From Perkinsus olseni (taxonomy: Eukaryota; Perkinsozoa; Perkinsida; Perkinsidae), in the NCBI GenBank assembly GCA_013115135.1, contig JABANP010000001.1:124001-188000 (forward strand): 64,000 nt of DNA, read 5' to 3'. Both the position numbers and the translations under genes were made by a program. Under the pieces are notes generated by a model that saw only the letters and a program-made list of their open reading frames with translations, ran no database searches and had not been told where the DNA came from. Positions 22,822 through 48,878 of the stretch are shown one piece after another (within the stretch, counting starts at the first letter, position 1; every line of letters begins with the position of its first letter).

Positions 22822-22833
22822 GCGGGGTACCTC

Positions 22834-23878
22834 ACAAATGTTAGCCCGAGCGGGAAGGGCCCCGCGAGGGCCTAGGGCGAGCGCGGGTGGTCTCTGCCAC
22901 CGGAAACAACCATATTACATCTGCATCGACTCAGAGCGATTTTCGAAATTCGCCGATACTTTTTCCTCAAACTTTGCATGAACACTTCTATCATGCACAC
23001 AAGTTATCCTGCAAAGGCTCATGTCAAACGAAAACATCCACCCCACGAACCAACCATTTCTCATGGGAAATTCGGGTGACGTGGCGCACAAAAGAGACAG
23101 AACTACGCTCCGCTGCCAAAATGGTGCACGTTTCACAATTGCCGTTTATACGCCGTGCAGGAGGCTTCAAATGAGGTATATTTTGCACAAAAATTGCCAC
23201 GAATGTCCCCAACAGCTATGAGATCTACATGCTACTCTCTGAAAAGTTGAATCGTGTTGGATGAGCCTTTGCCTGCGGAATTCGTATTTGGGGGCGCGCG
23301 CTAACATAAACAAGAAAGCGCACGCCATGGGAGCCGGGCTGGGCGTGGGTGTTCGGTGTTCGGGTTCGGGACAGGGACGCTATTAATGGCCTTGTGTGCA
23401 GCTCTGATTGGGCCATACTGCCAACTTATGCATCACTCCCTGTCATGTACGATTATTACGAAACGTGACCCAAGTACTTCGGCCAAACAGTTACTGGTCG
23501 ACTTGCAACATACTGTGTCGCAGATTTTCGCTTATCGGTTCGCTCGGGAAGATGGGCATGCCATGTTTGCCAGTACGAATGGAGCCCAGCGATTGAGTTT
23601 CCTTAACCTTGCAAGCCAGCGACAATGCTTAACCACGAAGTCGCAATGTCGATATTGCGGCCCGGCAGCGTTCTCCATCGGAGAGCTGGCCGGGCCGCAC
23701 ACATCTCCTCTCGCATCTGCATCGCGCGTTCATCGCCCTCTGTTCTTTCACCTATGCCTGACCTCTCACATATATCTCTCACATCCAGAACCTAGTAACA
23801 TGTTCTATTATGCTGTGGTTTGCTCACGGTATACGACCTAAGCGTAGCGTCGGTTGAAACGATCTCCATCACATCTCA
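22834..23878. mobile_element. Probable nested insertion between gag and pol (about 1.05 kb)
   Basis: GTACCTC occurs at 22,827-22,833, just upstream of the pol ATG, and again at 23,879-23,885, touching the gag stop codon. The gag stop (23,876-23,878) is the first codon past the repeat. The intervening 1,045 bp has many stops in the element's sense frames and lacks the TAGAT pentamer that saturates the rest of the element. It holds an inverted repeat near 23,658-23,698 (CGGCCCGGC / GCCGGGCCG) and an antisense 161-aa open frame at 23,356-23,841 without recognisable motifs. No terminal inverted repeats are clear, so its class is unknown. It could instead be an original spacer of this lineage. Confidence 0.5.
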
Positions 23879-26800
23879 GTACCTCCTGATCTTACGTTGC
23901 ACGTCTAGCGGCTCAGCTGCGAGTGTTGCTAGATTCATCCTTAGTGCTCGGCTTAGAACCCTTATTCTCAGCCGGCTTGTAGTTGGTCTTAGACTTAGAA
24001 GTTCTAAGTTAGAACTCCCCTTCTTAGGCTGTCCACCAGTAGGTTTCTTAGCTTTGCAGACATAAGCTAGATGTCCCTTCTGCTGGCAGCGTAGACATTT
24101 TAGGCTCTGGCTCGGCACCTCGCAGGTAGATTGATCGTGGTTAGGATTACCACACTTAGAGCAACGAGAGTCCACCTGGGCGACATTAGGAGCGGTGCAT
24201 AGACGCGCAGGGTGGCCACTCTCCAAACAGCGGTAGCACTTGATGGATACTAGATCGGCCCCAACTGCGTAGCAGTAGTTGTTGTAGTCATCGATGTCAG
24301 AGTCCTCGCTATCACACTCGATGGTGTGAACGCGTCCTTTAGGGCGCGAGTTAGAGACTGGTTTGTCTCTGCGTAGCTGAGGTCCTTCGATGGTACCCGA
24401 GGCCGTAGTTGCTCTGCGTTGTCGTCCTAGACGTCTGCGGTCATAGTCCGACAGTAGTTCGACGAACTCTTCATAGGAGACTCTGTGATCGCCCACTTCG
24501 ATCTCAACCTTCTCCTTAAGATGGTTAGAGGAAAGTCCATCATAGAGTCGTCTTTTCAGCGTAGATTGCCGAGGCCCAGCCCGTAGATAGACCAGTTCAT
24601 CAGCTAGGGTCTCAAGCCTGCCGATGAACTTGAATAGGGTTTCGCTAGGTTGTTGAACACAAGTATTGAACTTGTATTCGGTCCTAGCTAGAGCTTCATC
24701 AGTATCGAACCTCCTGCGGAGTTCTTGATAAAGCCGATTTAGATGCCACTCGTAGCTCTCATGACACCTAGCTGGGGGCTCCAGCGAGTTAGTTAACTTA
24801 CGCCAGAGGCCCGGATCGATATTGTGCTTAGCCCATAGATAGCGGCTGACCGCATTGTGGCCCTCCATCGCTTGATCAATCTCTCGACAGAAAGTAGATC
24901 CACTCCTGTCGTCATCGTTGCCAATGAAGATAGACTTAGAGGAGCGCTTAGTGGCATTGTTAGATGCCGAGTCGAAGTCCTTGTCTAGGATACGCGAAGC
25001 GCATGGCTTATGATGGCATCCAGGGCACTTAGAATGATACCCAGCGATAGATCGCTTGGCAGGGACATAGAATTCCTCAGTTCGATAGGTCTTCGATCGA
25101 GGACGTAGTCGACTCGTAGCTCCACGAGTAGGCTTCCCATGCCTCCCGTGGTAGCTTGATGAGCTCCTAGAATACGAGGACCCCCTAGAGCTCGAGAGTG
25201 TCCTGCGACGGCTAGATGAGGAATGATCACGTTGGCGACGTCGATCTCGATGACGCCTTGAGGATCGCCTCGAGCGGTCAGTGTGGGAACCGTCATCCCT
25301 AGATGAGCAACTGGGTTGCTGCCTAGGATGAGTAGATGCTGGGCTTTGATCCTCACGCATATCGCGTTGATGGAGTGCTTGATGTCTTGGGCGACAACTA
25401 TCGATATTGTAATACTGAGCTCCATATCGAGAGTCAGTAGTGCCAGCGGGAGCGCTAGCTAGATGGGGTCCCAATCCCATAGTTGCAGGATTCATAGGTA
25501 GCTGTCCGTTAGGCGAACAGTAGTATGATTGTGGACCAGCATGGCCCATAGATGTACCATAGTAGACAGCGTTACCAACCGGAGGTAGATGCTGTGAATT
25601 AGGATTAATGGTAACATGTGGAGCTCGAACACTAGAAGAGGGATGATAGGTTGCAGCAGGTGTCGGCTCCTGATGTCGCCCCATCTCGAAGACGGAAGGC
25701 GGGTAGATCTCATTGCTGCCTGAGATCAGTGGGTTTGCACCCATAGATGAAGGATAGGTCGGGTCACCCCCAGAATAGCCGGGTGAGACCGTGCCAGGAT
25801 CATCATAAGTAGATTGGCCATTGCGATAGGCTTGGCCTTGTAGATCGTGCCCCCTAGCATAGCTAGGTTGGTCTCCGTACTCGACTGGACCATGTGGACC
25901 ACGTCCACTTGGGTAGGTTGAACCCATAGCAACCTTGTTAGAGTACATCTTAGTGTCTCTAGAATATCCATCATAACCCCCACCATCACCATTAGGGAAA
26001 CCATCGATGCCACCACCAGTTAGATAACCACCACCACCACCAGATTGATGCCCACCAATACCAACACCACCACCAGATTGATGCCCACCAGTCTCAGTGT
26101 GATCGCCAGCGTTGTAGATGTCGTTAACCTGATGACCATTGTAGACCGGGTTGGATCTATTAGATAGATCCTGGTAGGGACCGCCTTGGCAGTGTGAGGG
26201 TTCTGAGCCACGTGACCGTGCCGGCCGGGGGCACTGAAGGGGCGCTACTAACCGTAGATTATGTCTAGGCTTTCGCTCATCGACCTCACCTTTGCCCTCG
26301 TGGTAGATGTGACTAATTGAATACCCGTACTGACACGGTGGAAACTGGTTAGAACACGCAATAGTAGGCACAGAACATGGTATAGATTCGTCACTCATCA
26401 ATCTTTCTGCCGTCCTCGGGCTCCCCTCTACGGGGCCTTCCGCAGGGGCTCGGATCGGTCTCGATGGCGAAGTCGATAGATGCTCGGCCTCGACGGGACT
26501 AGACTCTGGGTCGTCCTCAGGGCGTGTCTTAGATGGGGCTGTGGTCTCCATGGTTGGGGTTAATCCCTTCATAGGTTCACCGAAGCTGGGGGAACCATAG
26601 GGAAGTGTAGGGTTAGATGGACTGGATGTGGGACCAACAACATTAGATTCCTTAGAAGGATTGGGCTTCTTGGAGGTATCTCCCGAAGCGTTGTTGGAGG
26701 CCACGAAAGCGCTTCCAATAGTTGGAAGGCCTTGTAGTTGATGCCTTGTTGTAGATGACGACCCTTGTGAACTCGCTGTCAAGGTCTTCGGACCGCTTAG

Positions 26801-27211
26801 CCCACGCCCTATGAGTCTAGCAGAGGGAGGTCTTAGGCGAGTCTGGCTCCTCGTGCCATAGAGGCCTTTAGAAGATCTCCGTGCCGCCCGCGGACTCGTT
26901 CGGTCACCTTGAGGATCTAGATGCCCCCCCTCTCGTCTGGAGGGTAGAGTCACTAGGGGGTGGTCGCTGAAGCCTTGTGCAGGGGGTTCAGTACAGATAG
27001 ATCGCTCCTTGTTGTCAGGGGCGTCGCTGTAGATGGCGTCGTCACCTTGAGGCTCGGACTGGGCTCGGGGAGAGATCCCGGTAGAATGTGCAGGAATCGA
27101 TGGGAGCCTGGTTATAGGGGAAGAGGAAAAAGCAGTAGATTTGCCTCTAGATCTCCCTTTGCGGACAGGACCGACAAAGGGAGGCAACTTAGAACCAGAA
27201 CGTAACTCCAT
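23876..27211 (-). CDS. Gag of the BEL/Pao element
   Basis: An intact 1,111-aa frame. The first about 41 codons lie inside the 5' LTR. The N-terminal half is disordered and Pro/Ser/Gly-rich, with a Gly-His repeat (GGHQSGGG) around 26,040-26,100. An Arg/Ser-rich block follows (RRSSRRHRDRRRQRD, then SSSSRRRTLSSSRGSSYS) near 25,150-25,260. The capsid-like helical region is near 24,500-24,850. Three zinc knuckles close the protein: CYRCLESGHPARLC, CSKCGNPNHDQSTC and CLRCQQKGHLAYVC (24,050-24,250), all CX2CX4HX4C, which bind genomic RNA. The frame ends RKIRRY right at the putative insertion, so the native C-terminus may be missing. Confidence 0.92.
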   Translation of the reverse strand: MELRSGSKLPPFVGPVRKGRSRGKSTAFSSSPITRLPSIPAHSTGISPRAQSEPQGDDAIYSDAPDNKERSICTEPPAQGFSDHPLVTLPSRREGGHLDPQGDRTSPRAARRSSKGLYGTRSQTRLRPPSARLIGRGLSGPKTLTASSQGSSSTTRHQLQGLPTIGSAFVASNNASGDTSKKPNPSKESNVVGPTSSPSNPTLPYGSPSFGEPMKGLTPTMETTAPSKTRPEDDPESSPVEAEHLSTSPSRPIRAPAEGPVEGSPRTAERLMSDESIPCSVPTIACSNQFPPCQYGYSISHIYHEGKGEVDERKPRHNLRLVAPLQCPRPARSRGSEPSHCQGGPYQDLSNRSNPVYNGHQVNDIYNAGDHTETGGHQSGGGVGIGGHQSGGGGGYLTGGGIDGFPNGDGGGYDGYSRDTKMYSNKVAMGSTYPSGRGPHGPVEYGDQPSYARGHDLQGQAYRNGQSTYDDPGTVSPGYSGGDPTYPSSMGANPLISGSNEIYPPSVFEMGRHQEPTPAATYHPSSSVRAPHVTINPNSQHLPPVGNAVYYGTSMGHAGPQSYYCSPNGQLPMNPATMGLGPHLASAPAGTTDSRYGAQYYNIDSCRPRHQALHQRDMREDQSPASTHPRQQPSCSSRDDGSHTDRSRRSSRRHRDRRRQRDHSSSSRRRTLSSSRGSSYSRSSSSYHGRHGKPTRGATSRLRPRSKTYRTEEFYVPAKRSIAGYHSKCPGCHHKPCASRILDKDFDSASNNATKRSSKSIFIGNDDDRSGSTFCREIDQAMEGHNAVSRYLWAKHNIDPGLWRKLTNSLEPPARCHESYEWHLNRLYQELRRRFDTDEALARTEYKFNTCVQQPSETLFKFIGRLETLADELVYLRAGPRQSTLKRRLYDGLSSNHLKEKVEIEVGDHRVSYEEFVELLSDYDRRRLGRQRRATTASGTIEGPQLRRDKPVSNSRPKGRVHTIECDSEDSDIDDYNNYCYAVGADLVSIKCYRCLESGHPARLCTAPNVAQVDSRCSKCGNPNHDQSTCEVPSQSLKCLRCQQKGHLAYVCKAKKPTGGQPKKGSSNLELLSLRPTTSRLRIRVLSRALRMNLATLAAEPLDVQRKIRRY

Positions 27212-27465
27212 AACTCCTGAGGCTTAACGCAATGAACTAGAGCGTTGAATAGATAACAGATCTATTGATTCTAGGGTAGGCGATAAGTAGAGATACTTCC
27301 CCGATACTATCAGATAGATAGTACACTCAGATTACTCGTAGAGAGCACTCAAAGCACCAAAAAGGCGACTAGATTAGCCAACTTTGGCCCCAGCCGTTTC
27401 AACAACATCGATCTCGGCGAGCGAGAAATCAAATAGCGCTGGCCCGACGGAGCGGCGCCTGCACA
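27087..27465 (-). repeat. 5' LTR of the BEL/Pao element
   Basis: 379 bp, TGTGCAGG to CCTGCACA on the minus strand, identical by eye to the other LTR. The gag ATG is at 27,211, so 125 bp of the LTR are coding. The promoter and transcript start must lie upstream of that, between 27,465 and 27,211. Confidence 0.95.
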
Positions 27466-31929: not shown

Positions 31930-33441
31930 TCATTTGGTAGGGGAGACCGTGGCGGAAGCCTGGATGCTGCTTGTCCCACTACCGACTCGGTACCTACGCT
32001 CGAAGTAGGCCTGAATCTCCTCGAAGGTTTTGCCCTTGGTTTCGGGGACCAGGAATAATACGAACAATACCATGATGAGACATATTCCAGCGAAAAGCCA
32101 GAAGACACCATAAAAGGTAATAGCTTCAGTGACTTGGTTCAAGAAGTGCGTGACAATGAAAGAACATAACCAGTTGACCATAGTAGCGATGGAAGCGGCC
32201 AAAGCTCTCACTTCGTCAGGGAAGAGCTCAGCCATTATCAACCACGGTATAGCACCCACACCGAAGGAGAAGGATGCGATGTAACAATACGCAGCCGTGA
32301 TGGCCAACCACCCAACATTCTGATTACCAGATACATTACTCAGATAAAAGAACAGACCCTCGCAGACAGCGCTGATGCACATGCCTGAAGCTGCTGATAT
32401 TAAGAGAACTCTTCTGCCGAGTTTGTCGACGATCGCCACGGCGATGATCGTTACACCGACTTGGACAGCCATAACCGTCAGCGCCACTTCGTTCCTATTG
32501 TCAATGCCTGCCGCTTGAAAGATAGAAGTCTGGTAGAAAATGATAGCGTTGATGCCCGAGAACTGCTGCAGTACTTGTAGCATAATGCCGATGAAAAACT
32601 GCATTCTACTTCTGTTCAACGCCTTCAAAGATTTCATAATGGAGCCCTTCTCCTCAGTGTCTTTCTTAGCTCGGATCGCGTCAAGGGCCATAAGCTCAGC
32701 GTTGACCTCGGGGTCACTCTCGTCGGCACCACGCAACCTGATGAGGACGGCTTTGGCTGCCTCGTTGCGAGACTTCTCGGCAAGCCAACGTGGGGACTCC
32801 GGCGCGAAGAACATGCATATACCGAAGAGGGCAGCAGGGATGATGTAGATGAAGCTGAGGAGCCGCCAGTTACAGAAGGTAGTGGAAGTAGCGTTTGGAT
32901 CGGTGGACCCTGCCTGAGTGCGGAATGCCAACCCGAGGACGTAGGCCAGTAGAATGCCGATGGTGATACCGAGCTGGTTGCACGCTCCCAGCAGGCCACG
33001 GTACTTGGTGGGGGCTACCTCGCCGATGTAGGTAGGCACACTGAAGGAGCTCATACCGAGGGCAATGCCGATAACGACGCGGGCCAGGATGAGCTGCCAA
33101 GCTGTGTTGGCAAGACCGATCCAAAGGAAGGCTAGCAGGAAGAGAGGGGATGCTCCAATAAGACTCCACTTGCGACCGATTTTCTCGTTAACAGGACCAC
33201 CGCCGAGGGCGCCGACGATGGCACCGATGTTGACCATAGAACCGAAGAGGGACGCTTCGTTGTCAGTGCGTAAGACGAAAAAGGAAGATCCCTGGCCGAT
33301 CTGGATAGGGTCCCCACCGGTGGTGGTCACGGTGTTCCTCATAGTGTCGATGGCTGGCCCTGAGAACCCCAGAGACAGGCCGAAAAGCAGCGCTCCGAAG
33401 AGGGATGCTGATACGGATAGAACCGCACAGGTATGATTCAT
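31930..33441 (-). CDS. MFS sugar transporter (SLC2/hexose family), intronless
   Basis: Single exon of about 503 residues, near the usual 450-550 for the family. Twelve hydrophobic segments are evident. Family signatures in order: GSMVNIGAIVGALGGGPVNEKIGRKWS (the G-x3-D/E-R/K-x-G-R-R/K loop after TM2, here NEKIGRKW), PTYIGEVAPTKYRGLLG after TM4, ESPRWLAEK after TM6, QQFSGINAIIFYQTSIF in TM7, DKLGRRVLL after TM8 and PETKGKTFEEI after TM12. It should move hexoses across the plasma or another membrane. I prefer the Met at 33,441 (MNHTCAVL), next to TM1; an in-frame Met at 33,483 adds 14 residues. The lack of introns contrasts with all large neighbours. Confidence 0.93.
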   Translation of the reverse strand: MNHTCAVLSVSASLFGALLFGLSLGFSGPAIDTMRNTVTTTGGDPIQIGQGSSFFVLRTDNEASLFGSMVNIGAIVGALGGGPVNEKIGRKWSLIGASPLFLLAFLWIGLANTAWQLILARVVIGIALGMSSFSVPTYIGEVAPTKYRGLLGACNQLGITIGILLAYVLGLAFRTQAGSTDPNATSTTFCNWRLLSFIYIIPAALFGICMFFAPESPRWLAEKSRNEAAKAVLIRLRGADESDPEVNAELMALDAIRAKKDTEEKGSIMKSLKALNRSRMQFFIGIMLQVLQQFSGINAIIFYQTSIFQAAGIDNRNEVALTVMAVQVGVTIIAVAIVDKLGRRVLLISAASGMCISAVCEGLFFYLSNVSGNQNVGWLAITAAYCYIASFSFGVGAIPWLIMAELFPDEVRALAASIATMVNWLCSFIVTHFLNQVTEAITFYGVFWLFAGICLIMVLFVLFLVPETKGKTFEEIQAYFERRYRVGSGTSSIQASATVSPTK

Positions 33442-33483
33442 TGACGACAGCGAAATTATCAACTGGGTTGGTAGCTGTAGCAA

Positions 33484-33991
33484 GGCGTCTTGCGCTCGCG
33501 TGCAGAATATCTCGCTACGCCCGATAATGAAAACGCGTACGGGGACCCGAGTGAGCTACCTCATTCAACCACGGCCTGCGTACGCTGGTCTGTCTTGCGC
33601 ACCGTAGTAGGCAAGCATGTCAATACTACTTACTATTGATTGGCCTGTGCTTGCGGGCGTTTGTCTGTCTGTTTGGCTGGTTAAGGTTGATAAACGTTTC
33701 ACTTGTGATCCGTATAATCTACCATGTCAGACGTGTATAATTCCGTTTCCACTCAAAAATAACCACGGCCTTCGGGTAAGAAAGGCCCCTGACGGAGAAT
33801 GGTGTGAGGCCAGAGAACAAGGGAACTGGAGGGTAGGGACAAGCGCCGCTGGAAGCTCTTGTGAGCATCGGTACGTAACCAGCTATGCACTGACGTGCTA
33901 ATTCTTTGAATGCGCAATGGGCTGTCCTCGCGAGCTTTGGCTGTGCACTCTTAAATCAACAGCATCACCGTTATACAGCAGAAGCGATCCC
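33484..33991. other. Upstream region of the transporter, no gene supported
   Basis: Contains only an unsupported plus frame (33,617-33,901). It probably carries the transporter's promoter. No recognisable motif. Confidence 0.35.
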
Positions 33992-37148: not shown

Positions 37149-39960
37149 AATGACAGCCATCAACGCAGGGAAGTGGATCTGCTTCAGCATAGACGATCTT
37201 AAGAAATTCCAAGGTCTTCCAGAGTGCACCAAGAAACCCAAGAATTTTCCAGCCCTCATCGACAAGGACAACAATGAGTCACCATTATTAGGGAGTACTA
37301 GGGGGGAGGGTCGGCCTGCTGGTCGATGGGGGGCCGCAGAGGCGATAGGCTCTCCTGTCACGAGTAGTCGATGGTGTGGTAAATTTCCATGAGACTCGGG
37401 TTCTACTGCGCGAGAGATTGGGCCATAGAGTCCCTGGTTGTAAGCACTGAATTCGCCGGGCTGTTGAGTCTGTCTCGGATGAGTCAGCCACGCGTGGGAA
37501 GATATCTTTCTGTTTCAGCTTATCGAGGAGATCAGCGGAGAGGCGGCGGACAAGGCAGTGGTGGTCGTCCTAGAGGGACCAGTACAATGGCATCTGGATG
37601 GACGGGGTAATAGTGCCCTCCTGGCCTCTTCCCTTATACGCTGGTTATCAATCACATCAGTAGTTTCTGGGTTCTGAGGGTTTCTGTTAGGAATTGTAGC
37701 ATATTACTGCGCTCCAGTTCGACGATCACTTCGAAGCTCTCATCTTCATTAATGGGTCTCCCATCTCCTAATCAAAATACTCGGTGCACTCTCGCCATTT
37801 CCTTCCCGTCTCAGTGACCATCATGAGCGTGCGGGTGCTCGGGAAGTGGGCAAACCAGGCCAGTGGAGGTACGTGGGTTGAACGACTTCCGGGATTTTTC
37901 GTTTTTGATACCACATTTCCACGAGTTCGCGTGATTGCCATGCTCGGAGACTGGCTCATCAATGACGTGCGGTTCTGCAGTAGATCAGCATTGGGCCCTT
38001 CGGTTGTTATTCTCACGGGAGATCCTGGTGAGAGGCTCGGAGGAGAGTTGGGCGTTTTGTGGTATCTCAGAGATGGGGAAGAAGACAGAGCGGGGGACAA
38101 GCATCATCATCAGCGAGGTGCTCGGAGGTAGTATCTTGGAGAATCTTTATACTGCGCAAAGGATGGTGGTACGAATGTTTAGAGATGATGACCGTGGGGG
38201 TCGATACTCCAGTGGTTATCCAACTACTGCTGGTAAAGGTCGAAAGGGTGGGGGAGGCCGGTAGTACACTGGGCGCGGCCAGGCACACCTCTCAATGGCC
38301 CATCTCGGTCACCTAGCGCACTTTAAATATATTGTGGGCAGTGCGCCATACCACTCTTTTCGCAACATCCGGATCTTCCTAGGGTACCCTTTCTTGTCTC
38401 AGGAGACGCCACTCCACCAAGCAGTCCTCAAACTGGCGGTCTCGGCCGAGGGAGATTCTGGCCGGAAAGCCTCTGCCGACCGTCGGTGGAGGCGGTCTGG
38501 ATCAATTCACGTTGGGTGATATCAGGAAGGCTGAGAAAACCCTGGAGAAGGTGAGGGCTGGTTCTTATCGGCATTTGCGGAGGAAAAGCTCATTTCTGCA
38601 GTCCCATATGAGTCTGGGTCAGTACGCTCGTAAAGTTGCGCAAGGAGAGATCACTAAGACGGCAGATGAGGAGGACGCCAAGTAAGGGGGTCGGGTTCTA
38701 ACCTTTTCCGTATCTTGCACGGGTGAAGCTTGGATTTCCGTTTCTCTCAGTAAATTGCTCGATGATGACGATGGTTTCTTCGCGAGTGAAATTCCGGACG
38801 GTGAGGATGACGGAGGGAGGATGGCGAAGTGGCTGAAACCGACCGAAGGGAGCTCGGGGCCGCCGATGGTAATCTGATGGGGAAAGTCAACTCAGTGGTT
38901 CTGGGTAGTGCATCTCGAAAGCCTGGGGGAAATAGGGAACCGTCGCAAGGAGGGTTACAGTGAAAATCTTGGCGATAGCAATCGCGAGTCGTGTCTGCTA
39001 TTTGCAGGATTTGTGGATGTTCTGGTATTGATTGTAATTATTTTCAGCCCCAACCCCATTTGCCGGCAGGCGCCAAGACTCTTGAGGAATTGGAAGCTTC
39101 TCAGAGGCAGAAGCGACAACAGCGCGCTGCCGCAGAATCTTCGAGGATGCAGGGCCGAAATCAACAAAGTGTTGGACAGGTCAGCAGTACCAGCAGCAGC
39201 ACTCGCTATAATTTCGTGGCGCGCGGTCAAATGTCTAACGAATTTTCGATATATGCCCTTTCCCCTTAATTCCTATTGGCCCGGCCTTCTCGTTATAAAA
39301 TTCTTATCCGAACGATGGTTTGCTGCCGCTGTGCTTGCTGTTGCTACCCGTGGGTAGGTGTCAGAGTCTTTATACTATCAGGGAAGCAACCAGGCTGGTC
39401 TGCAGCTACTCTCAATGCTCCACTCAAAGGGCGGTGCTCAACAACAGCAGCAGAAGCAGCCGACGCCTAGGCCGTCCTCAGCAGTACCCCCACCTCCACC
39501 GGTCGGGGTGAGGGCCCCTCCACCACCGCCCCCTCCGCCGCAGTACCGTCCACAAGCACCACAGGTTGGACAGGGGCAGTCTGGGACCGTGTGGTCAGGA
39601 TGACTTCTCAGGCACCACAGGCTCCTCAGGCTAGGTTCTCGACCCAGCAGGTTATCGATCTGTTGCAGCAGGGGAGGCAGCAGCAGGAGGCTCAGAAGGC
39701 CCGACAGCAACAAATTGAGAATCTGTTGTTGCTGCAGCAACAGCTGGCTCGGGTAGGCTGGCTGCGACTCGAATGCTGTCGCGCGCCACGAAATTGTGGG
39801 TAGGCTCGAGCGCGTCAGGAGCAGACAGGACAGCAGATCACCCCCACGCCGAATATGATGGCGTTGTTGGAGCAGCTGCAGAGGCGACAGGTGAGACAGG
39901 GAGCCTCTCGCGAGTGGTTTTTCTCGGAAGTGAACCGTGTGACAGGCCCAACGCCAGCAA

Positions 39961-39992
<32 letters not shown>

Positions 39993-40401
39993 GCAGCAGC
40001 AGCAACAACAACAACGGCAGCAGATGTTGGCCTCCGCCATCGCCCAGCAACGAGCCGCTCAACACCAGCAGCAGCAAGCACATCAGTCGAATGCTTATCC
40101 ACAGCAGCAGCAACAACAGTAGGCATCCTGGGGTAGAGTGGCAGTCGTTCGAGTGGTCTTTATCTACAGGATCGATCCGGCCCTGCTGGCCCGTTTACAG
40201 CAGCAACAAGCTCAGTTGAGGATGCAGCAGCAGCGACAACAACAGCCGCAACAACAACAGCCGCAGTGGAACCCACAGGTAGGAACAGACGACTTAGCGC
40301 TCGCCCCAGTGATCGATTGTGGCCCTTTCTTCCAGCAACCTCAGTCCAACTACAGTAGTCCACCCAATGAGCAGGATGCCGAGCAGTGTAACCAGCAGTA
40401 G
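37149..40401 (+). CDS. Unrecognised protein with Gly/Arg segment and polyglutamine tail
   Basis: Many small exons. Early exon at 37,149 reads MTAINAGKWICFSIDDLKKF. After an acceptor at 37,517 comes LIEEISGEAADKAVVVVLEG, then LQFDDHFEALIFINVTIM, GTWVERLPGFFVFDTTFPRV and LGPSVVILTGDPEMGKKTE (43-bp intron between GDP and EMG). A Gly/Arg segment follows (RGGRYSSGYPTTAGKGRKGG), then LDQFTLGDIRKAEKTLEKVR, an acidic LLDDDDGFFASEIPDGEDD, and MAKWLKPTEG. The C-terminal third is Gln/Pro-rich: QLLSMLHSKGG, proline runs, FSTQQVIDLLQQGRQQQ, a long CAG/CAA tract at 39,955-40,020, and IDPALLARLQQQQAQLR. It ends at the TAG 40,399-40,401. The layout is that of an RNA-binding or mRNP-granule protein, but that is inference. 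Introns at 39,180-39,381 and 39,753-39,803 each contain motif A. The N-terminal part could belong to a separate gene. Confidence 0.55.
39210..39226 (+). repeat. Intron motif A, copy in the 202-bp intron
   Basis: AATTTCGTGGCGCGCGG on the plus strand, here in the same orientation as the host gene. It lies 31 nt after the donor of intron 39,180-39,381, which joins ..QQSVGQ to GSNQAGLQLL in phase 0. Confidence 0.65.
39753..39803 (+). other. 51-bp intron carrying motif A in opposite orientation
   Basis: Removal joins ..LLQQQLAR to ARARQEQTGQQITPTP in frame. Motif A, as GTCGCGCGCCACGAAATT, occupies 39,778-39,795, more than a third of the intron. Relative to the gene it is inverted compared with the copy in the upstream intron at 39,210. 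It is the same orientation relative to transcription as in the kinesin intron at 4,478-4,520. Confidence 0.75.
39955..40020 (+). repeat. CAG/CAA microsatellite (polyglutamine)
   Basis: A run of CAA and CAG triplets, broken by single CGG (Arg) codons, encoding about 19 consecutive Gln. Flanking exons are also Gln-rich (to 40,260). The CAA/CAG mixture suggests selection for Gln beyond simple slippage. Confidence 0.85.
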
Positions 40402-40551: not shown

Positions 40552-43500
40552 ATGTCTGACGAAGCTGGGAGTGAGAAGCTGCATGTGGGATGGGAAATTG
40601 AGAAAATGACGGAATCGATCGAAACGACGCATCAGAACATTCAAAGCCTGAAAACGAAAATTGCCGGTGTTGTCGGAGGGCTGAGCCAAATAAGGCTAGC
40701 GGTCTCCCTAGCCATACCGCCAGCGGGTGAGGAACGCTTCTTCGTGTCACCATCGTGGATCCGTGAGGAGTGTGTAGGTGACAGAAAAGACGGTTTCAAA
40801 AAGCTTGATGCAGAAGTTGCTAGGCGACGGTTGGAGCAGCTAAGGAAGGACATCGCCGACTACAAGGCTCAGGTGGCGGACTCCTCCTCCCAGTGGTGGT
40901 GATTGCCCTGGTGGGTAGGTCTATGAGTTGGCGGAAACTAGCGATGACAAGAAGCGTCTTCGAGGGAGTCTGAGGCGGAAGGCCGTGATGGACGACAAGA
41001 GCAAGCCACTGTGAGTTGATGAGCAGCTCTGGGTGTGGTGTCAGCCGGTGAGCAGGTTCGAGAGGTTGGGAGGGGCCGCTGACATCGGCTCTGCTGTGGA
41101 CCTCGTCTACGACAAGGCACTTGCTGATCCCCGTGAGAGGGCGTTAACTGAGAGGGCTCTTGGACTCTAAGACTAGACTAAAGCGGCGGCGGCAAGACCA
41201 TCTTCCAGCCTAGAGGACCGTCCTTCTGCGACTTGTTCTTTCATTCTGTTTCCCGTCGGAAGAGCGCCCTCGAGGTAGAGGCTCACTCTCGTCTATGCCA
41301 AGGTACACGAGCATACTTCGATAAGGCCCAGAAGAAAATGAACCAAATTCGAGAGCGCATGCAGACCTTTGTCGTGAGCTACGTGGGGGGCCCGGCAAAT
41401 TATCAGGAGGAAGACCTTAAACCGGTAGGCTCTTGCCATCTGGAATGGGTTGGTGCCGGGCGTCATGATGATGATGAACTACTGTTGTGACCCCACGGTT
41501 GGTGAACCCGACATGATAGACGTAGAATTGATACAACCTTATTCATTCATGTGGATATTATATTTATACTCATGAATAATAATGAATCTAAAGTATTTAC
41601 TTATTTCAATTATTGCATCATAATAACCAAACCCTTGAATAATAATACGCCTAGCTAGTAATGATGTTACAGCAGCTACACTTATGATAACTGACCCAAC
41701 CATTCCTAGTTCAGCGTAAGGCAATCAACGGAGACAGTGTCCGTAGACGAGATGCCACAATTGGCCTAGACAAGACAATAGTGAGGTCAGGTCCACTACA
41801 ATATGAATATTATGGACTTCCACTTTGACGCCATGCTGGAACACTTCAACGCTGCCTTCCTGGAGATGGGCGTTCATTCTGAGGCCATCGCAGACTTCCT
41901 TCAACTTCTGGGCAGAATCCGCAAATACATAACGACCGGGAGTGGGTTTCCTCCGCGCGCTTCCGAGGAGTAGGTGGTGGTGTGGTAGGCACGGTGCGGA
42001 TGGCGCTGGCTCGAAAGGCCGCTGAGCATGGCAGGGACGAGATGTTCCTCAACCTGGGCGAGAGCGAAGGGATCGCTAAGATCATGAGTCGAACGTGAGC
42101 ATCCTGCTCTTGGCCTGCCCGGGGTTGTTCTATTCAGCGCACAGGTACGATATGGTACAAGTGGATGACCGCCTTCGAAGCGTCTTCAAGGGGAAGGACA
42201 TGGATGCTATCAGGCAGCAACAGACATTGTGAGTGACTCTGTCGTTTCTACTTGGCAGTATTAATAAAATCACGGATGATAAATGCTGTGTTGCAACGGG
42301 TCTGTTTATGTTTTGCGTACCTATCTGTTAGTTGCTCGTCATTAGTACTTCTGCATCCTGTTGTTGCTTGTGGTGTGATGATGGCGTTTTATGGTATGTG
42401 CGCACGCATGCACAATGAGACGATTGGCGCATACTTAGTAAAACTTAACCCTCCGAGTATAGAATCGGGATGATGATGATGTTGTTGATCCCCTACTTAC
42501 ACTGTTAACTTGATGCTCATTAGTTTGACTTGAATAGTAATAAACTCGATACTTAGTTCGAGTGTAAGGTTCTATTTACGTAGTGTTGTGGGGTCAAAGT
42601 TTCAGAAATGTGTTAATTATCTTCATGTGGAATATAGTAATGCTGCAAAATGTCTACAATGACGGAAATACCACTTTTCTTGCAAATCTCATTAGCAGTG
42701 TGGTAAGTCTTGCTATGCTTATCGCAAGTACTCCTGTGGTAGGTACATGTGTGAGCTGCTAGGAGGCCCTAGGATGTACGAAGGGAGAGGTATGCTGGAA
42801 ATACACGAAAACCTGAAGATAAGCGATTATTTATTCGACTGCTTCGTTATGGACGCTGACCGTGCATTACACAGTGAGTTGACTTGGTCGGAGGAATCTT
42901 AGGTTGAAGCGTGGTGAATATCCATCAGGTTTGAATATGACTGAGGAGCTGCATGACCTCGTCATCTCTATGATGGAAGAACAACGGAAGTATGTCGTGA
43001 AAGGCCACAACAAGGCGGACACACAGCGATTGGTGGACGGCAAAACGGTAACGGAAACTCTATTTCCTCGACCAGTCCTTTTGTTGTATCTTGTCCCTTT
43101 CTCAGATTCTCGATCGCATCGGAGGCGAGTTGAACGTCGAAGCCGTCGTGGAGACAATGTGAATAAATCGTCAATACCCCTCAGTTCTCACGGAATCGAA
43201 ATTTTCAAGAATTCTCGGAAAATCTTTATTCCGCTTTCATGCAAGTTGCTTAGGAAAATTTCTCAAGAGGCCAATCCGTGATGAATCATGCTGCGCCGAC
43301 GGCAGTCCGTCTTTCTCGGTGATCATCGACCGATCCTCCGTCTATTGTGTGATAGGTACTTCGGAGCTGAGCGAGATCCGAGGATAAAGTTCTTCTTCTT
43401 TCTAGACAAGGATAAGCTAGCCACAGTGAAACGAAGGGTCACAGACTTCCTTTGCGGTGCCCTCGGCGGCCAGTCGACGTGAGCGGTCCTCAACGCCTTG

Positions 43501-46500
43501 CTGAGGCTCATCAGAGGCCCTTGCAGGATCGACGTGAACATCGTGAGAGCTGTGCATTACCCGATGAATATTGGTGACCATCAATTCGACGCTCTGGTGG
43601 AGAATCTTTCGACCTCGATGGAGCTGATGGAGGTCGACCCCGACGTCAAGGCTGATGTCCTTGATGTGGTCAGCCATGTAAGTCCAACTCTGCCGCTGCG
43701 CGAGTTGAGAAGGTCAACTCTCAGTTGAGAGGGGAGATCACAGCAGGGGCCACGAGCAGGCTGGAGATCGCCCGAAGGAAAACGGAGTCTGCTGGTAAGA
43801 CGTCCCCGGACGAACCATTCCCCTAGGGCCTTGGTCGTTCAGGGACAGATGGCCTGTACAAGACGTTGGGCGGCGACGCTGGTATCATTCAATTCGTGGA
43901 AGAGCTGTAAGTTGCCTCTTCGCGCTCGGGAGCTCGTCCCACTTATTTGTTCAACTCTGCGGCTGTGTATACATCGTTGGGTGGTCGGTAGGGCTTAGAG
44001 TGTTTTAGGATAGCTCATGAACCTCATCGTAGCTCTCAAGGCCGGCGGAACCTGTCTTTGGCCTGCTGTGGTTTGAAGGCTTGAATCGATTCAGTATCTT
44101 GAAATCACCCATCAACTCGTTATCATGATATTTCAAGGTACAAGATATGCCTCCTCGACGATCGCATCAAGATGTTCTTTCAAGGCAGTAAACTCGACGC
44201 GGTGAAGGCGGCCCAGACCATCTTCATGCAACAGTTACTCGGTGGAGCTGTCGAGTGAGCATCGCCCGCACCATCACCATTCGACTGCCAAAATCATGAC
44301 GAGCTTCCCTCTTGTCGTCGTCACGCTGTCATCAACTCTTCCTCGATTACTCGTTTCTTGCGCTTCCGTTTCCCATCCCGAAAGACTTCTCGCATTACTG
44401 CTACCCGTCAGGTACACCGGACGCGAGCTGAAGAGGATCCATCAGACGCTCCTCATTCAAGACTGGCAATTTGATGCCTTCTTGGATAACGCTCGAAAGG
44501 CCTTAGCTTCACTCGAGTAGGCCGTGGACTTCTCTCAAAACGATCGAACGCTGCCTTCCTCAGTACTGATAGTGATACTATCGACGAGTGCACAGTGTTG
44601 ATGGAGACGACACGCCTAGTGAGTCCTTGATGTGAGAACACCCTCGGAGCTTCCTCTGTCTCAGGAAGTGGTTTCCGCTGTGAACCGACAGTTCGATGTG
44701 AAACGGATGATACAGGACGCCCATCGGAAGCCTCTTTACGAAAGGGTTGGAGGGGAAGTTAGTAGGTCGCAGCTGGTATAAGATTCTCTAAACAGTATCA
44801 CCGGTACTTTACCTCAGCGATTGCGAGGCTGTGCGACTCGATGTACACGGCTGCGCTGGAGGATGATCGGCTGAGGTTCTTTTTCGAGAAAGAACAAGGC
44901 TAAGGTCAGCGCTGCCTGACTCCCCAGCCCAATATATTCTTGACTCCGTCCCTCGGTGGTGCCGATGAAGTATTGGCTGGGGAGTCCTGGTTGGCCCCTC
45001 TGGCGTTATTCAACTGGCTGTTGGCCAAATGCAGTGGGCGTCGAATGACTGCGATAATAGGGCGTCGATAATTCGCTAGTGGTGATTGTGCATGGCTTTG
45101 GGTGGGGATCGGGAAGAGGAGATGTAGCTGTCTGCGCGTTGTTACCATCTTTCCTTCGTCGTCAGGTCCAATCTATCAAGAAGAAGATGACCCAGTTCAT
45201 CTGCGGTGCCATCGGTGGTGAGTCAGTTCGCTTCGGGCGTCCGTACTCGTCTCGCCTTCCCTTCTGCTATCATTCCTCTCGTGGAACGTTTCAGCTCTGC
45301 ATACAATTACGGTCTGAGACAAATGGGATGGTCTCTCCCACCGTTGATACTACCATACCGTATTCGGTGCGACGTTGACCCGCGCACTCGTCAGGTCCGT
45401 CGACCTACGACCCGGCGGATCTGCGACCAGCGCATTACTCGATGAACATCGCCTCCCACCATTTCGATGTCATGCTGTCTTTTATCAAGGAGGTGGACGA
45501 CAGGGGAGGCTGCCGTCCCTCAAGTCCTTGGATGTGTTTTCCATCAGATCCTCAAAACCGAGTTGGAGCTCGACAAGGCGGATGTGAGGGAGGTCCTCAG
45601 GGCTCTGCAACCCGTTAGAGGAGATATTATCAATGGGTGTAAGCCGGTGGGATTCATACCACATTTCCCCCTAATCACCAATTCATCGCTCTTTTCGCTA
45701 TTCCATCGCTCCACAACTCAGCAGTGGTTTTCAAGGAACGCCAGTCTCTCCTGTGAGGAAGGGCGAGCGACTGATACGACCCTCCAGATACTGTCCGGTC
45801 GGAGATAGCTCGACGTTCTACGGACAACGGCCTCGACCAGATGTTCCTCAGAGTTGGTGAGAATTCGCTATTGGCCTCGCTGCGCTAAAAGAGGTCACTG
45901 GCAGGGGAATCGGAAGGCGTCACGAGGATCGTCAACTCACTCTTCTCGATCCTCGCCACGGACGCACGGATAAAACGCTTCTTCAAGCCAGAGAAGCGAG
46001 ACCAGCTGAAACAAGGCGTCTCCGTCTTCCTCGTCGACAGGTTCGGTGGGCCTAAGAACTACCAAGGTGGTTCAAGTCTGCGGGGCTGACTTCCTCAAGT
46101 CGGGTTCTCACAGGTCGGGATCTTACAGCAGCTCATGAAGGCCTCGGCATCACCGACTACCACTTCGATGCATTCGTAGCTGATTTTTTGAGGTGGGCTG
46201 CTCTTCATCGTAACACCTTGTTTACCGACTGCCGCTGCCAGGGCACTGAGTGCCACCGATGTTGATGAAACTGTCGTCGACGAGCTGATCGTTACTCTGG
46301 AGCCTCTGCGGTCACAGGTGGGCAGTAGATACCAGCTGGATGCAGTTGCAAGGCCTATGCAGGTACTTGGTCGAAGCGATGAGGTTGATGTGGTCGTGAC
46401 GAAGAACGGGCAGACGCTGTTGGAGAGGTTGGGTGGAGACGACCAACTGGAGACTTTGGCTGATGTCATGTGAGGTTGCTCGATGAGGGCCTTCACAAAC

Positions 46501-48012
46501 CAACTTACTCATACGCCCGTAGATAGGACCTGACGGTAGAAATGTTGCCGTTATGGCGGGGATGCCAAGCCAGTCGTGAATCTCTGTCGTCATGAACGCA
46601 ACCAATGTCGACAGTTGCCCGTCTGCGCTCAACCGCAGTAGTCGGCGGACGAAGAAAGGGCCCGAGCGAACGAGACGCCCCGCGAGCCCCATTCGGTACA
46701 TTATCGAATAGTTCATCGACATGAATCCACTCTCGCTACAGCGCAGTTATCAATCTCCCCTACCAGGCTCCTCGACGCGGAAAGGTGTCTTTATCAGGAA
46801 TGAGAAAGTCTTGGAGGACAGCCGCCTTCGCTTCTACTTCGAGAAGAGTCACTTCAAACGGCGGAATATCCGTCGGAAATTATACCAGTTCATGTCTGGA
46901 GCGTTCGGCGGGCCACTCCAGTAAGCCTTGGAGCCACTCGGCCTCGCCGTGCTGCTCTGTAGGGGCGTCCTCCGGCTCAGGTACGACAACGCTCACCTGA
47001 AGCCCGCGCATTATGATATGAATATTACTGACTACCATTTTGATGCTTTCCTATCAGTTTGGATGGCCGCCTGTGAGTGTCATTCAGCTGCTGTCATTTT
47101 CCACTGCGCTAGTCCGCCCGCTCGAACGCTGATAGCGTATGGCAGGTAAGGAACTGGACGTGGATGGTGAAGCTGCTGAGGATTCCATTGAAGTGCTTAA
47201 CGGAGTCCGATCGGCAATCACCGGCGGATGCGTCGTCAGGATGGAGATGTCTCGGAAGAAGGTGAGGTCTGGGAGCGTCTTCCCATCGCACTTTGGCTCC
47301 ATCTCAGGCCCAGCTCGAGAGCCCCGGTCAACTCTTCGAGCGCCTCGGTGGGAGAGAAGGAGTGGTCGAGCTGGCCGACAAGCTCTTCACGATGGTTACA
47401 CGGGACCACCGTAGGCGGCTTTTTTGTATTCCCTCAGCACAGTACTGCCGATTGAATTGTTCAGGTATCGGAATGTTCTTCGAGGGAGCTAAACTGGCGA
47501 GTATGTGGCAGGGGCTCACTTCCTACTTATTGCAAGCCTTTGGTGGTCCGCAAGATTACCAGGGTCGACCTTTGGATGAGGTCCACGAGGTGAGAGGATT
47601 CTTCATGACCGCAGGCTATCTGGCTGAGATTCTAATCGATATCGTTTCCTTTTCTTGGCATCGTCTAGCCTGCGCTGCGTCATCGACCATTATTCGACCG
47701 CTTGCTAACAGTGACTATTCTCTCAGGTGCTGGCCATCGACGACTACCATTTCGATTGCTTCCTTCAACTACTTCACAGATCACAACGATTGCTTGGACA
47801 AGATCACGACCTCTGCAATGACACTTTGGTATCGTCGACGCTTCGGCGGCCTCTTCGCCTTCGCGCTGCCGTCAGATCATTCTCCAGGGATTTGCGGTTG
47901 ATTCCCATCTACTGATGTTTCAGGAAGTACTGGAGAACCTCCGCCCCCGGGTTCTCCATGCCCATTATCTGCGATCCGGCACAGCTCATGCCGATGGCTC
48001 TGCGGCGAAGTG
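40552..48012 (+). CDS. Eight-domain truncated (2/2) haemoglobin polyprotein with coiled-coil leader
   Basis: More than 30 small exons. The leader starts MSDEAGSEKLHVGWEIEKM and is coiled coil (RRRLEQLRKDIADYKAQVYE). Then come eight successive group-1 truncated-globin (trHbN-like) domains. Each has an A/B helix start (LFERLGG, MFLNLGE, ILDRIGG, LYKTLGG, LYERVGG, MFLRVGG, LLERLGG, LFERLGG). Each then has a CD/E segment DxR-(x)-FF, a FxxxxLGGP-type E helix, the proximal (F8) His and a G helix D-(Y/F/H/W)-x-FD. The family fold normally has a single domain of about 120-140 residues binding one haem; here eight are fused, with linkers such as VNSQLRGEITAGATSRLE and RSDEVDVVVTKNGQ. Well-supported introns include 40,873-40,918, 41,011-41,055, 41,425-41,790, 41,942-41,988, 42,095-42,144, 42,229-42,742 and 43,479-43,526. 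Stop TGA at 48,010-48,012. Likely role is O2/NO binding or NO detoxification (inference). Not a pseudogene as far as I can read: all exons join in frame, except one junction in domain 5 that I could not fix. Confidence 0.85.
41056..41941 (+). other. Globin domain 1
   Basis: Exons read LFERLGGAADIGSAVDLVY, then RAYFDKAQKKMNQIRERMQ, FVVSYVGGPANYQEEDLKP, then VHYNMNIMDFHFDAMLEHF. Proximal His codon at 41,794-41,796. B10 position is Tyr. The 366-bp intron before the His exon holds the AT-rich insert. Confidence 0.85.
41533..41716. other. AT-rich insert inside a globin intron, possibly organellar
   Basis: About 180 bp, roughly two-thirds A+T, with sharp borders against GC-balanced intron sequence. 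The minus strand has an uninterrupted 61-codon frame with A/T-ending codons and a hydrophobic stretch (ELGMVGSVIISVAAVTSLL). This is the style of mitochondrial DNA. I cannot assign it to a specific mitochondrial gene, so nuclear mitochondrial insertion is only a candidate explanation. Confidence 0.4.
42042..43047 (+). other. Globin domain 2
   Basis: Reads MFLNLGESEGIAKIMSRTY, DMVQVDDRLRSVFKGKDMDA, YMCELLGGPRMYEGRGML, EIHENLKISDYLFDCF. Proximal His codon at 42,804-42,806; B10 Tyr directly after the 50-bp intron 42,095-42,144. A larger 514-bp intron (42,229-42,742) interrupts the E-helix region. Confidence 0.85.
43106..43677 (+). other. Globin domain 3
   Basis: Reads ILDRIGGELNVEAVVETM, YFGAERDPRIKFFFF, VTDFLCGALGGQS, then NIVRAVHYPMNIGDHQFDAL. 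Proximal His codon at 43,555-43,557; B10 Tyr. Introns at 43,159-43,355 and 43,479-43,526 (48 bp). Confidence 0.85.
43846..44618 (+). other. Globin domain 4
   Basis: Reads GLYKTLGGDAGIIQFVEEL, YKICLLDDRIKMFFQG, IFMQQLLGGAVEYTGREL, KRIHQTLLIQDWQFDAF. Proximal His codon at 44,440-44,442; B10 Tyr. Introns 43,907-44,137, 44,255-44,411 and 44,517-44,563, all phase 2. Confidence 0.85.
44728..45657 (+). other. Globin domain 5
   Basis: Reads PLYERVGGE, then LCDSMYTAALEDDRLRFFF, KKKMTQFICGAIGGE, LRPAHYSMNIASHHFDVML, and ELDKADVREVLRALQPVRG. Proximal His codon at 45,433-45,435; B10 Tyr. The splice junction after VGGE (about 44,757-44,835) does not resolve to a clean GT..AG with full frame and helix length. 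That is either my limit or a local change. Confidence 0.75.
45836..46320 (+). other. Globin domain 6
   Basis: Reads MFLRVGGESEGVTRIVNSLF, SILATDARIKRFFKPEKRDQ, VFLVDRFGGPKNYQGRDLT, AAHEGLGITDYHFDAFVAD. Proximal His codon at 46,134-46,136; B10 is Phe instead of Tyr. It is the most canonical F/G segment of the eight. Confidence 0.85.
46402..47150 (+). other. Globin domain 7
   Basis: Reads LLERLGGDDQLETLADVM, NEKVLEDSRLRFYFEKS, KLYQFMSGAFGGPLQ, then YDNAHLKPAHYDMNITDYHF. Proximal His codon at 47,009-47,011. With the splice that keeps frame, B10 reads Asn; this depends on the chosen acceptor near 46,790. A linker exon (ELDVDGEAAEDSIEVLNGVR) follows. Confidence 0.8.
47318..48012 (+). other. Globin domain 8 and C-terminus
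   Basis: Reads QLFERLGGREGVVELADKLF, HRIGMFFEGAKLASMWQ, LTSYLLQAFGGPQDYQGRPL, DEVHE, then VLAIDDYHFDCFLQLL. Proximal His codon at 47,584-47,586; B10 Phe. The last exon reads EVLENLRPRVLHAHYLRSG and ends at 48,012. Confidence 0.85.
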
Positions 48013-48878
48013 ACGGCCCAGCGTAGCATGTATTCGGGAGTTTAACAGTCATTTATCATGCCCTCATGGGAATGACGATTTGTCGTACATTACCGATAGT
48101 TTCGCGTTGTAACCAGAGTTCAATGTTAGCAAGCTCGAAATTATTTGGAATTTGCGCAAGCACATCCCTGTTCCATGTAAAAGTAAGAGCGCTTGCATAA
48201 CAACATCCAACTGCCGCGCCGAAGATCGGGAGGGGCTGTCCTAAAAGCCTCTCACAACGCTAGAAGCGCTTCCATACGACGCTGAAGCCTCTCTCGAAAA
48301 CCTCCGAAGCCTTTAAACCAGGTGCGAATACTCGCCCACACTGAGGAGGTACTCGGTAAGGAACGTTTGGACCTCTCCGTTCCAAACGTGTGCTATGATA
48401 AGCGGGACAACTTGGGCAGTAACGGAACAGCAGGCCCCTTAATATATTTTGGTTACAATTTCTCGCTTTTTGCGAGTCAGAGCTCGGCGGTGTTACAGCG
48501 CCGCTGTACACATCGTGGTGTAATATCGAGGGGGCAACAGACCCTCCCCACCGAGACTGAACACAACATGATGTTATGCAGAGAGGCATGTGCCAAGAGA
48601 CAGTTCATCTGCTGCTGTTGTTGTTTATCGAGGCACTCAATAGAGGCTTTATAGCGATAATTGATTATTCAGCAGCTGTTGTAACGAATAGCACTATAAA
48701 AGTAATACGTTAATATGCGGAACAGTAATTAGTCACGAAGATTCACTTAACGACGACAACTAGGAGCACGCATGAAGTAAAGAATTTTATACAGCGACGG
48801 TGAGGTCAGTCCGGCCGCTAAGACATTGTCCTTTGCTGAGCAAGTAATAAAGTATCTGAGAAGGGAACGCAAAATCCC
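48013..48878. other. Convergent intergenic region
   Basis: Between the 3' ends of the globin gene (plus) and the K+ channel gene (minus). No exon-like frames or structured repeats that I can support. Confidence 0.4.

What the first reader, a model, noticed from the sequence alone, without database searches (positions are those of the whole stretch)
40552..48012. One gene encodes eight tandem truncated haemoglobin domains behind a coiled-coil leader
Truncated (2/2) haemoglobins are normally single domains of about 120-140 residues. Here eight complete group-1-like domains, each with N-terminal (L/M)-x-x-(L/I/V)GG, an LGG(P)-type E helix, F8 His and the (D)-x-x-FD G-helix start, follow one another in frame with short linkers. 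Multi-domain globins of the 3/3 type are known in some invertebrates. I do not know of an eight-unit trHb in a protist. High local haem density could serve O2 storage, NO scavenging or redox buffering (inference).
Basis: partly seen in the sequence, partly recalled or inferred. Interest (0 to 1): 0.93.

Follow-up and report, generated by a model that had tools for sequence, protein, structure and literature searches.

The report
Eight-haem truncated globin in Perkinsus
A single gene in the clam parasite Perkinsus strings eight small oxygen-binding globin units into one protein, and relatives with the same eight-unit plan occur elsewhere in the genus and in a free-living plankton predator, so the number eight looks old and kept on purpose.

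Summary
One spliced gene (ATG 40552, stop 48011-48013, + strand; 33 GT-AG introns placed, one junction unresolved) encodes a helical leader and eight group 1 truncated haemoglobin (trHb1) domains. Pfam PF01152 scores seven domains above its cut-off; D5 is hit in two pieces, because the frame breaks inside it. A P. olseni protein 97% identical up to that point crosses D5 unbroken, so the break is probably an assembly error or a private allele. The gene is not unique: the genome holds at least seven more eight-domain genes. All 17 relatives of 1,107-1,219 aa, including an Oxyrrhis marina transcript, carry eight domains. Domains alternate between two kinds (A odd, B even) with different distal pockets: E11 mostly Met in A, Gln in B. 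Linkers inside AB pairs are conserved and predicted helical. The tree suggests growth by doubling, 1 to 2 to 4 to 8. The proximal His is in 143 of 143 domains with a letter there. Best reading: an eight-haem O2/NO-handling protein; architecture near certain, function inferred. Multi-unit trHbs are known, so this is a new variant of a known kind.

The parts
40552..48013 (+). whole gene model: leader plus eight trHb1 domains, about 1,190 codons, 33 introns placed plus one unresolved junction
   Evidence: spliced profile models; all 33 introns GT..AG, ATG at 40552, TGA at 48011-48013
40552..41002 (+). helical, heptad-like leader (exons 40552-40726, 40778-40872, start of 40919-41010)
   Evidence: model, matches start of P0021; hydrophobic periodicity p 0.0045 against shuffles; relative P0006 modelled as two helices at low confidence
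41003..41941 (+). domain D1 (A type), coordinates include introns
   Evidence: PF01152 55.7 bits; pocket Tyr B10, Ile E7, Met E11, His F8
42036..43005 (+). domain D2 (B type), coordinates include introns
   Evidence: PF01152 52.8 bits; Tyr B10, Ile E7, Gln E11, His F8
43042..43748 (+). domain D3 (A type), coordinates include introns, start approximate
   Evidence: PF01152 47.2 bits; Tyr, Val, Val, His
43848..44676 (+). domain D4 (B type), coordinates include introns
   Evidence: PF01152 56.5 bits; Tyr, Val, Gln, His
44728..45637 (+). domain D5 (A type), broken: N part up to about 44898, C part from 45166; frame break and one unresolved junction between
   Evidence: two PF01152 pieces, 17.1 and 30.8 bits; orthologues P0025 and P0021 read D5 unbroken
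45835..46368 (+). domain D6 (B type), coordinates include introns
   Evidence: PF01152 56.2 bits; Phe B10, Leu E7, Val E11, His F8
46411..47228 (+). domain D7 (A type), coordinates include introns
   Evidence: PF01152 50.5 bits; Asn B10, Ile E7, Leu E11, His F8; nearest solved structures are group 1 trHbs
47326..47956 (+). domain D8 (B type), coordinates include introns
   Evidence: PF01152 62.7 bits; Phe B10, Met E7, Leu E11, His F8; nearest solved structures are group 1 trHbs

Best explanation
The locus is one gene for an 'octaglobin': a helical leader followed by four AB pairs of group 1 truncated haemoglobin domains. Shown here: eight domains (D5 broken in this copy), eight proximal histidines (that of D5 from its C part and P0025), two alternating pocket types across the family, conserved linkers inside each AB pair, the same plan in at least eight genes of this genome and in Oxyrrhis, and a low dN/dS from D6 to D8. 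Inferred: each domain binds one haem (up to eight per chain). The B domains (Tyr B10, mostly aliphatic E7, Gln E11, as in the trHbN cage) hold O2 tightly and turn NO plus O2 into nitrate, or act on peroxide. The A domains (Tyr, Ile, Met) form a weaker-binding or electron-relay partner in each pair, the leader helices dimerise or dock the chain, and the protein stays in the cytosol. So it most likely works as a dense array of ligand and redox sites for O2 and NO handling. In the window's paralogue D6-D8 have drifted towards apolar pockets, so this copy has probably specialised.
For: Domains in order. Domain-free controls. At least seven further eight-domain genes in the genome, one matching the annotated FOZ60_015921 (P0023). 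Eight PF01152 stretches each in P0006, P0010 and P0021. 17 of 17 relatives of 1,107-1,219 aa have eight. P0006 is a transcript of Oxyrrhis marina, and P0012 is a transcript ORF marked complete. His F8 in 143 of 143 domains with a letter there. E11 Met 46 of 72 odd against 1 of 72 even; Gln 45 of 72 even against 0 of 72 odd. A-to-B linkers 0.45-0.66 identical, B-to-A 0.24-0.37, domains 0.45-0.55. AlphaFold of P0006: pLDDT 83.8, A-to-B linkers mostly helical. Foldseek best hit Tetrahymena trHb, TM 0.91 over the target. dN/dS 0.17.
Against: The window copy breaks frame in D5. Its D3, D6, D7 and D8 lack the usual pocket of their type. No haem binding, expression or activity was tested, and no transcript of this copy was seen. 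The role of Met E11 is a guess. 'Cytosolic' rests only on my seeing no obvious signal peptide; no predictor was run. Single-base exon insertions in C456 could also mean decay rather than assembly error. The 3' flank is about as similar to C456 as the exons are.
Confidence: 0.72

Rival explanations
1. A tandem cluster of separate single-domain trHb genes, each with its own start and stop, that only looks like one gene.
For: No transcript of this locus was available to me; searches return two chains because of the D5 break; single-domain trHb genes do exist elsewhere in the genome at C113 and C457.
Against: Domains are joined by in-frame exons and linkers in the model, apart from the D5 break. 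Relatives of the same length are single ORFs, some from transcripts. Annotated orthologue P0025 joins D2-D8, and P0021 joins leader to D8.
Confidence: 0.03
2. The window copy is a pseudogene or a dying paralogue of a working octaglobin family.
For: Frame break in D5; distal pocket residues changed in D3 and D6-D8; near-copy C456 has four single-base exon insertions.
Against: dN/dS 0.17 from D6 to D8. Orthologue 64-83% identical in P. chesapeaki for the six domains cleanly aligned. Another P. olseni record reads D5 unbroken. E11 of D3, D6 and D7 and B10 of D6 are the same in P. chesapeaki, so those changes are old; D8 is not shared.
Confidence: 0.2
3. A plain oxygen store or carrier like the multi-domain 3/3 haemoglobins of invertebrates.
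For: Eight haem sites per chain (His F8 at every position); multi-domain invertebrate globins are discussed as O2-binding pigments (PMC4503718, passages).
Against: Those are 3/3 globins (recalled) and many are extracellular (same passages); these are 2/2 group 1 folds with no evident secretion signal. The Tyr/Gln pocket of B domains suggests very tight O2 binding, poor for delivery (inference from trHbN knowledge).
Confidence: 0.2
4. A structural or haem-buffering array in which most haem sites are not catalytic.
For: In the window paralogue D3 and D6-D8 have largely apolar distal pockets but keep His F8. Across the family no odd domain has Gln E11 (0 of 72).
Against: Tyr B10 (104 of 144 domains) and, in B domains, Gln E11 (45 of 72) are mostly kept.
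Confidence: 0.2

Closest known systems
Single-domain group 1 truncated haemoglobins (Tetrahymena trHb 3aq5-3aq9, Paramecium 1dlw, M. tuberculosis HbN 1idr)
   Same: fold, GG motifs, His F8; Tyr B10 and Gln E11 together in 43 of 72 B domains
   Different: here eight units in one chain with a leader; E7 mostly aliphatic (as in HbN, recalled) where Tetrahymena has Gln; Met E11 in most A units
Chlamydomonas THB5, four consecutive 2/2 domains, and the 'multidomain truncated hemoglobins' of Hade et al. 2017 (title only seen in a reference list)
   Same: several 2/2 globin units on one polypeptide (PMC7082302 passages)
   Different: twice the units of THB5, constant number eight, AB alternation, leader, at least eight paralogous genes. 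Whether Hade et al. list Perkinsus is unknown to me; the paper is not held
Invertebrate multi-domain haemoglobins (Artemia, Daphnia, bivalves, Planorbidae)
   Same: many globin units in one chain, up to 10 or more (PMC4503718 passages)
   Different: 3/3 fold (recalled); crustacean and several mollusc ones extracellular (same passages); PF00042 not found in the window domains
Symbiodinium haemoglobin-like proteins
   Same: globins of a dinoflagellate (PMC3631397, one passage)
   Different: 198-247 aa for the Hb-2 isoforms; the words tandem and multidomain do not occur in the text

Membership tests
group 1 truncated haemoglobin (domain level) | PF01152 match above curated cut-off | tested here: met
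   7 of 8 window domains above 21 bits; D5 in two pieces, 17.1 and 30.8
group 1 truncated haemoglobin (domain level) | proximal His F8 | tested here: met
   143 of 143 domains with a letter there; one gap in 144
group 1 truncated haemoglobin (domain level) | 2/2 globin fold nearest to group 1 | tested here: met
   on relative P0006: best Foldseek hits are Tetrahymena trHb and M. tuberculosis HbN, TM 0.91 over the best target, each hit covering one domain; by sequence D7 and D8 hit chains named group 1 first. The other window domains were not compared with structures.
group 1 truncated haemoglobin (domain level) | polar distal cage Tyr B10 with Gln E7 or E11 (recalled as typical) | tested here: inconclusive
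   met in D2 and D4 of the window; not in D1, D3, D5 (from P0025), D6, D7, D8
group 1 truncated haemoglobin (domain level) | binds haem | not testable with these tools
   needs purified protein
multi-unit truncated haemoglobins | several 2/2 units on one polypeptide | tested here: met
   8 PF01152 stretches each in P0006, P0010, P0021, 7 in partial P0025; window model, with D5 broken
flavohaemoglobin | globin joined to FAD/NAD reductase | tested here: not met
   Pfam finds no reductase domain in P0006, P0010, P0021, P0025
invertebrate multi-domain 3/3 haemoglobin | 3/3 globin domains (PF00042) | tested here: not met
   domains score PF01152; PF00042 not reported for any window domain nor for P0006, P0010, P0021, P0025; one relative, P0007, carries a precomputed PF00042 label too

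The most novel reading that the evidence does not exclude
Octaglobin is an obligate eight-haem machine whose paired, unlike A and B haems exchange ligands or electrons along a rigid helical linker. It arose by three doublings before Perkinsea and Oxyrrhis parted and has been held at exactly eight units since, which would make it the largest conserved truncated-globin array known and the first with built-in site alternation.
Probability: 0.3. Interest if true: 0.82.

Novelty: new variant of a known kind. Interest (0 to 1): 0.62.

Why it matters
Multi-unit truncated globins are little studied as far as my searches show. Here a constant number (eight), a constant order (five of eight positions are clean branches of the careful tree, the rest nearly so) and two alternating haem-pocket types are shared by at least eight genes of one genome, other Perkinsus species and a free-living dinoflagellate. 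That makes a testable question out of why a cell would need exactly eight coupled haems. It also gives a case of protein growth by successive doubling, and names a large uncharacterised haem-protein family in a genus in which P. marinus is reported to lack catalase (PMC6642578).

Tried and rejected
Rejected: separate genes (linkers in frame, relatives are single ORFs). A viral or bacterial origin of the octamer: P0006 and P0010 gave no relative in IMG/VR and P0010 none in GTDB genomes. These scans reach close relatives only. A 16-domain fusion: P0002, P0003 and P0004 look like parts of two octamers run together, but at C945 a TGA ends the first gene and the leader ATG of the second follows about 140 bp later. 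Two-domain ancestors: the AB query gave two metagenome proteins (435 and 202 aa, on contigs under 1.9 kb) at E <= 1e-10, a word-limited search.

Led nowhere: intron positions differ so much between domain positions that they do not date the duplications. C456 could not settle the D5 break, because its match to the window's second half starts at 45939. Ten paper searches were run, eight of them on globins (44 was a transcriptome number, 63 the genome); none listed a description of an eight-unit trHb. Hade et al. 2017 is not held.

Dropped rows: window D5 left out of the domain trees and replaced by P0025 D5. P0034 and several relatives left out of the careful tree (83 of 147 rows kept). In the quick tree of all 147 rows, with P0034, only D1 and D4 are single branches, all labels together need 9 changes (least possible 7), and P0034 is the usual misfit. 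P0005 left out of the linker count (24 rows used). C801 was modelled after the tree and does not enter it; P0023, its annotated protein, enters only the linker count.

Full report
What is there. A spliced-profile search of my own, seeded with four single-exon paralogue domains, finds seven complete truncated-globin domains and D5 in two pieces, in order on the + strand of the locus, as two chains split at D5, and the same after retraining. The minus strand of the locus, seven other 8-kb stretches on both strands and four block shuffles give none. With a profile of full-length relatives the gene runs as one chain from ATG 40552 to the TGA at 48011-48013. Of its 35 introns I discard one before the ATG and one in D5; the other 33 are all GT..AG, median 55 bp. 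The leader, start and end match P0021, the P. chesapeaki orthologue. Pfam scores seven domains at 47-63 bits; D5 comes in two pieces of 17.1 and 30.8 bits.

The break. Inside D5 the reading frame is interrupted, in the exon beginning at 44818. P0025 (FOZ63_003368, P. olseni, partial) is 97% identical to window D2 to D5 N part and 92% to D5 C part to D8, and crosses D5 unbroken. The near-copy on contig C456 shows four single-base exon insertions against the window over about 1.1 kb of exon, so small indels do occur between contigs here. I read the D5 break as most likely an assembly error, but a private broken allele is not excluded. Exons differ from C456 by 3.3% (38 of 1,141), introns by 9.4% (87 of 926), the 3' flank by 3.8% (56 of 1,472); dN/dS is 0.17 over 380 codons. 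The flank being as similar as the exons weakens the exon-intron contrast; the dN/dS does not depend on it.

The genome and the family. G000 is unnamed. Contig C801 is 160,893 bases long, as is the contig of P0023 (FOZ60_015921, P. olseni), and my C801 model is 95.6% identical to P0023 over 1,194 columns. So I take the genome to be P. olseni. It holds at least eight eight-domain genes: the window, two head to tail at C945, and one each at C179, C717, C201, C878 and C801, plus the C456 piece and single-domain trHbs at C113 and C457. The genome search scored 40 of 108 candidates, so this is a lower bound. Some models have gaps or odd stretches (C201 leader, D4 and D6; C801 start of D1 and D4). 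A database search with the C717 protein gave 37 long relatives and one other hit, a chemotaxis protein (P0038). The 37 are P. chesapeaki, P. olseni, P. marinus, an Oxyrrhis marina transcript (P0006; species from a table in PMC9983209, passage), two MMETSP transcripts of unknown species and metagenome proteins. Of the 37, the 17 with 1,107-1,219 aa all have eight domains. The 8 longer ones have 7-13 hits (gene-model fusions, partial records or split domains, as I read them) and the 12 shorter ones have 4-7. The two P. marinus records are among these last two groups, so no clean octamer was seen for that species. P0032 and P0034 are divergent and their positions do not line up cleanly. P0006 and P0021 also score Protoglobin above its cut-off for the whole protein, with no single stretch passing.

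Two kinds of domain. On an alignment ruled by the Tetrahymena structure, His F8 is present in 143 of 143 domains (18 rows per position, one gap). E11 is Met in 46 of 72 odd and 1 of 72 even domains; it is Gln in 45 of 72 even and 0 of 72 odd. E7 is Ile, Val, Leu or Met in 65 of 72 odd and 70 of 72 even. Rows are related, so the Fisher values overstate independence. Linkers from odd to even are 0.45-0.66 identical with the pattern CTVRMELARK; even to odd 0.24-0.37; domains 0.45-0.55; leader 0.25 (24 rows). AlphaFold on P0006 (29 rows, pLDDT 83.8, pTM 0.68) runs each odd domain's last helix on into the linker (215-233, 466-499, 734-766, 1012-1033), and makes the leader two helices of low confidence. 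Foldseek's best hits are Tetrahymena trHb at TM 0.91 over the target, then HbN. pTM 0.68 does not fix how the pairs pack.

History. In the careful tree (83 rows, 119 columns) odd and even separate (100/98 and 99/91). D2 joins D6 (99/87), D4 joins D8 (98/95) and D3 joins D7 (78/65). D1 falls with D3 and D7 (98/96) and not with D5. D5, D6 and D8 are not clean single branches. Holding D1+D5 together is not rejected (p-AU 0.30), nor is D5+D7 (0.22). The rival pairings D2+D4 (0.077) and D6+D8 (0.086) are disfavoured but not rejected, and D1-D4 as one clade is rejected (7e-9). So single to AB is well supported, and tetramer to octamer is favoured, not proven.

Function. Nothing here measures it. Inference: B domains resemble the HbN cage, so O2 and NO chemistry; A domains differ. 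P. marinus is reported to lack catalase (PMC6642578, title and passages), which fits a role in oxidant defence, but the presence in free-living Oxyrrhis argues against a purely parasitic role. In the window copy D6 is Phe/Leu/Val, D7 Asn/Ile/Leu and D8 Phe/Met/Leu at B10/E7/E11. The E11 letters of D3, D6 and D7 are the same in P. chesapeaki, that of D8 is not, so this paralogue has long diverged.

Novelty. THB5 of Chlamydomonas with four 2/2 domains, and the statement that proteins with several 2/2 domains exist, are in print (PMC7082302, passages). Eight paper searches on globins listed no eight-unit trHb; that library lacks most subscription papers. One title (Hade et al. 2017) may hold it and could not be read. 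Hence: new variant of a known kind.

Noticed in passing
window 17371-22914 (-) and 23879-27223 (-): Long ORFs of 1848 and 1115 aa; the first matches Peptidase_A17 (Pao retrotransposon) at 48.6 bits, the second only weakly PNMA (21 bits, below cut-off): probably a Pao-like element.
   Followed up: partly
window 31933-33555 (-): Uninterrupted 541 aa open frame matching a sugar transporter, Sugar_tr 386 bits, in contrast to the intron-rich globin gene.
   Followed up: no
window 42402-42489, in an intron of the gene: Short dispersed repeat: 14 of the 22 matches (on 13 contigs) start here at 78-85% identity; a second one at about 41480-41547 recurs on C36 and C67.
   Followed up: no
L016 (G000:C456:37075-37802): At this contig end a stretch 84% like window 42870-43512 lies directly beside one 95% like 45939-46000: misjoin, or a shorter allele lacking the stretch between.
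   Followed up: partly
L009, G000:C945 near 101185-101325: Two octaglobin genes head to tail, a TGA and about 140 bp apart; some other Perkinsus annotations appear to fuse such neighbours.
   Followed up: partly
metagenome proteins P0008, P0010, P0016: Octamers of 1161-1166 aa on contigs of 31-60 kb; if called as one ORF, some protists have intron-free octaglobin genes. Species unknown.
   Followed up: no
window 39943-40120 (+): Glutamine-rich (CAG/CAA) open frame just upstream of the globin gene.
   Followed up: no
window 12209-12290 (+): tRNA-Ser (AGA), the only RNA gene found in the window.
   Followed up: no
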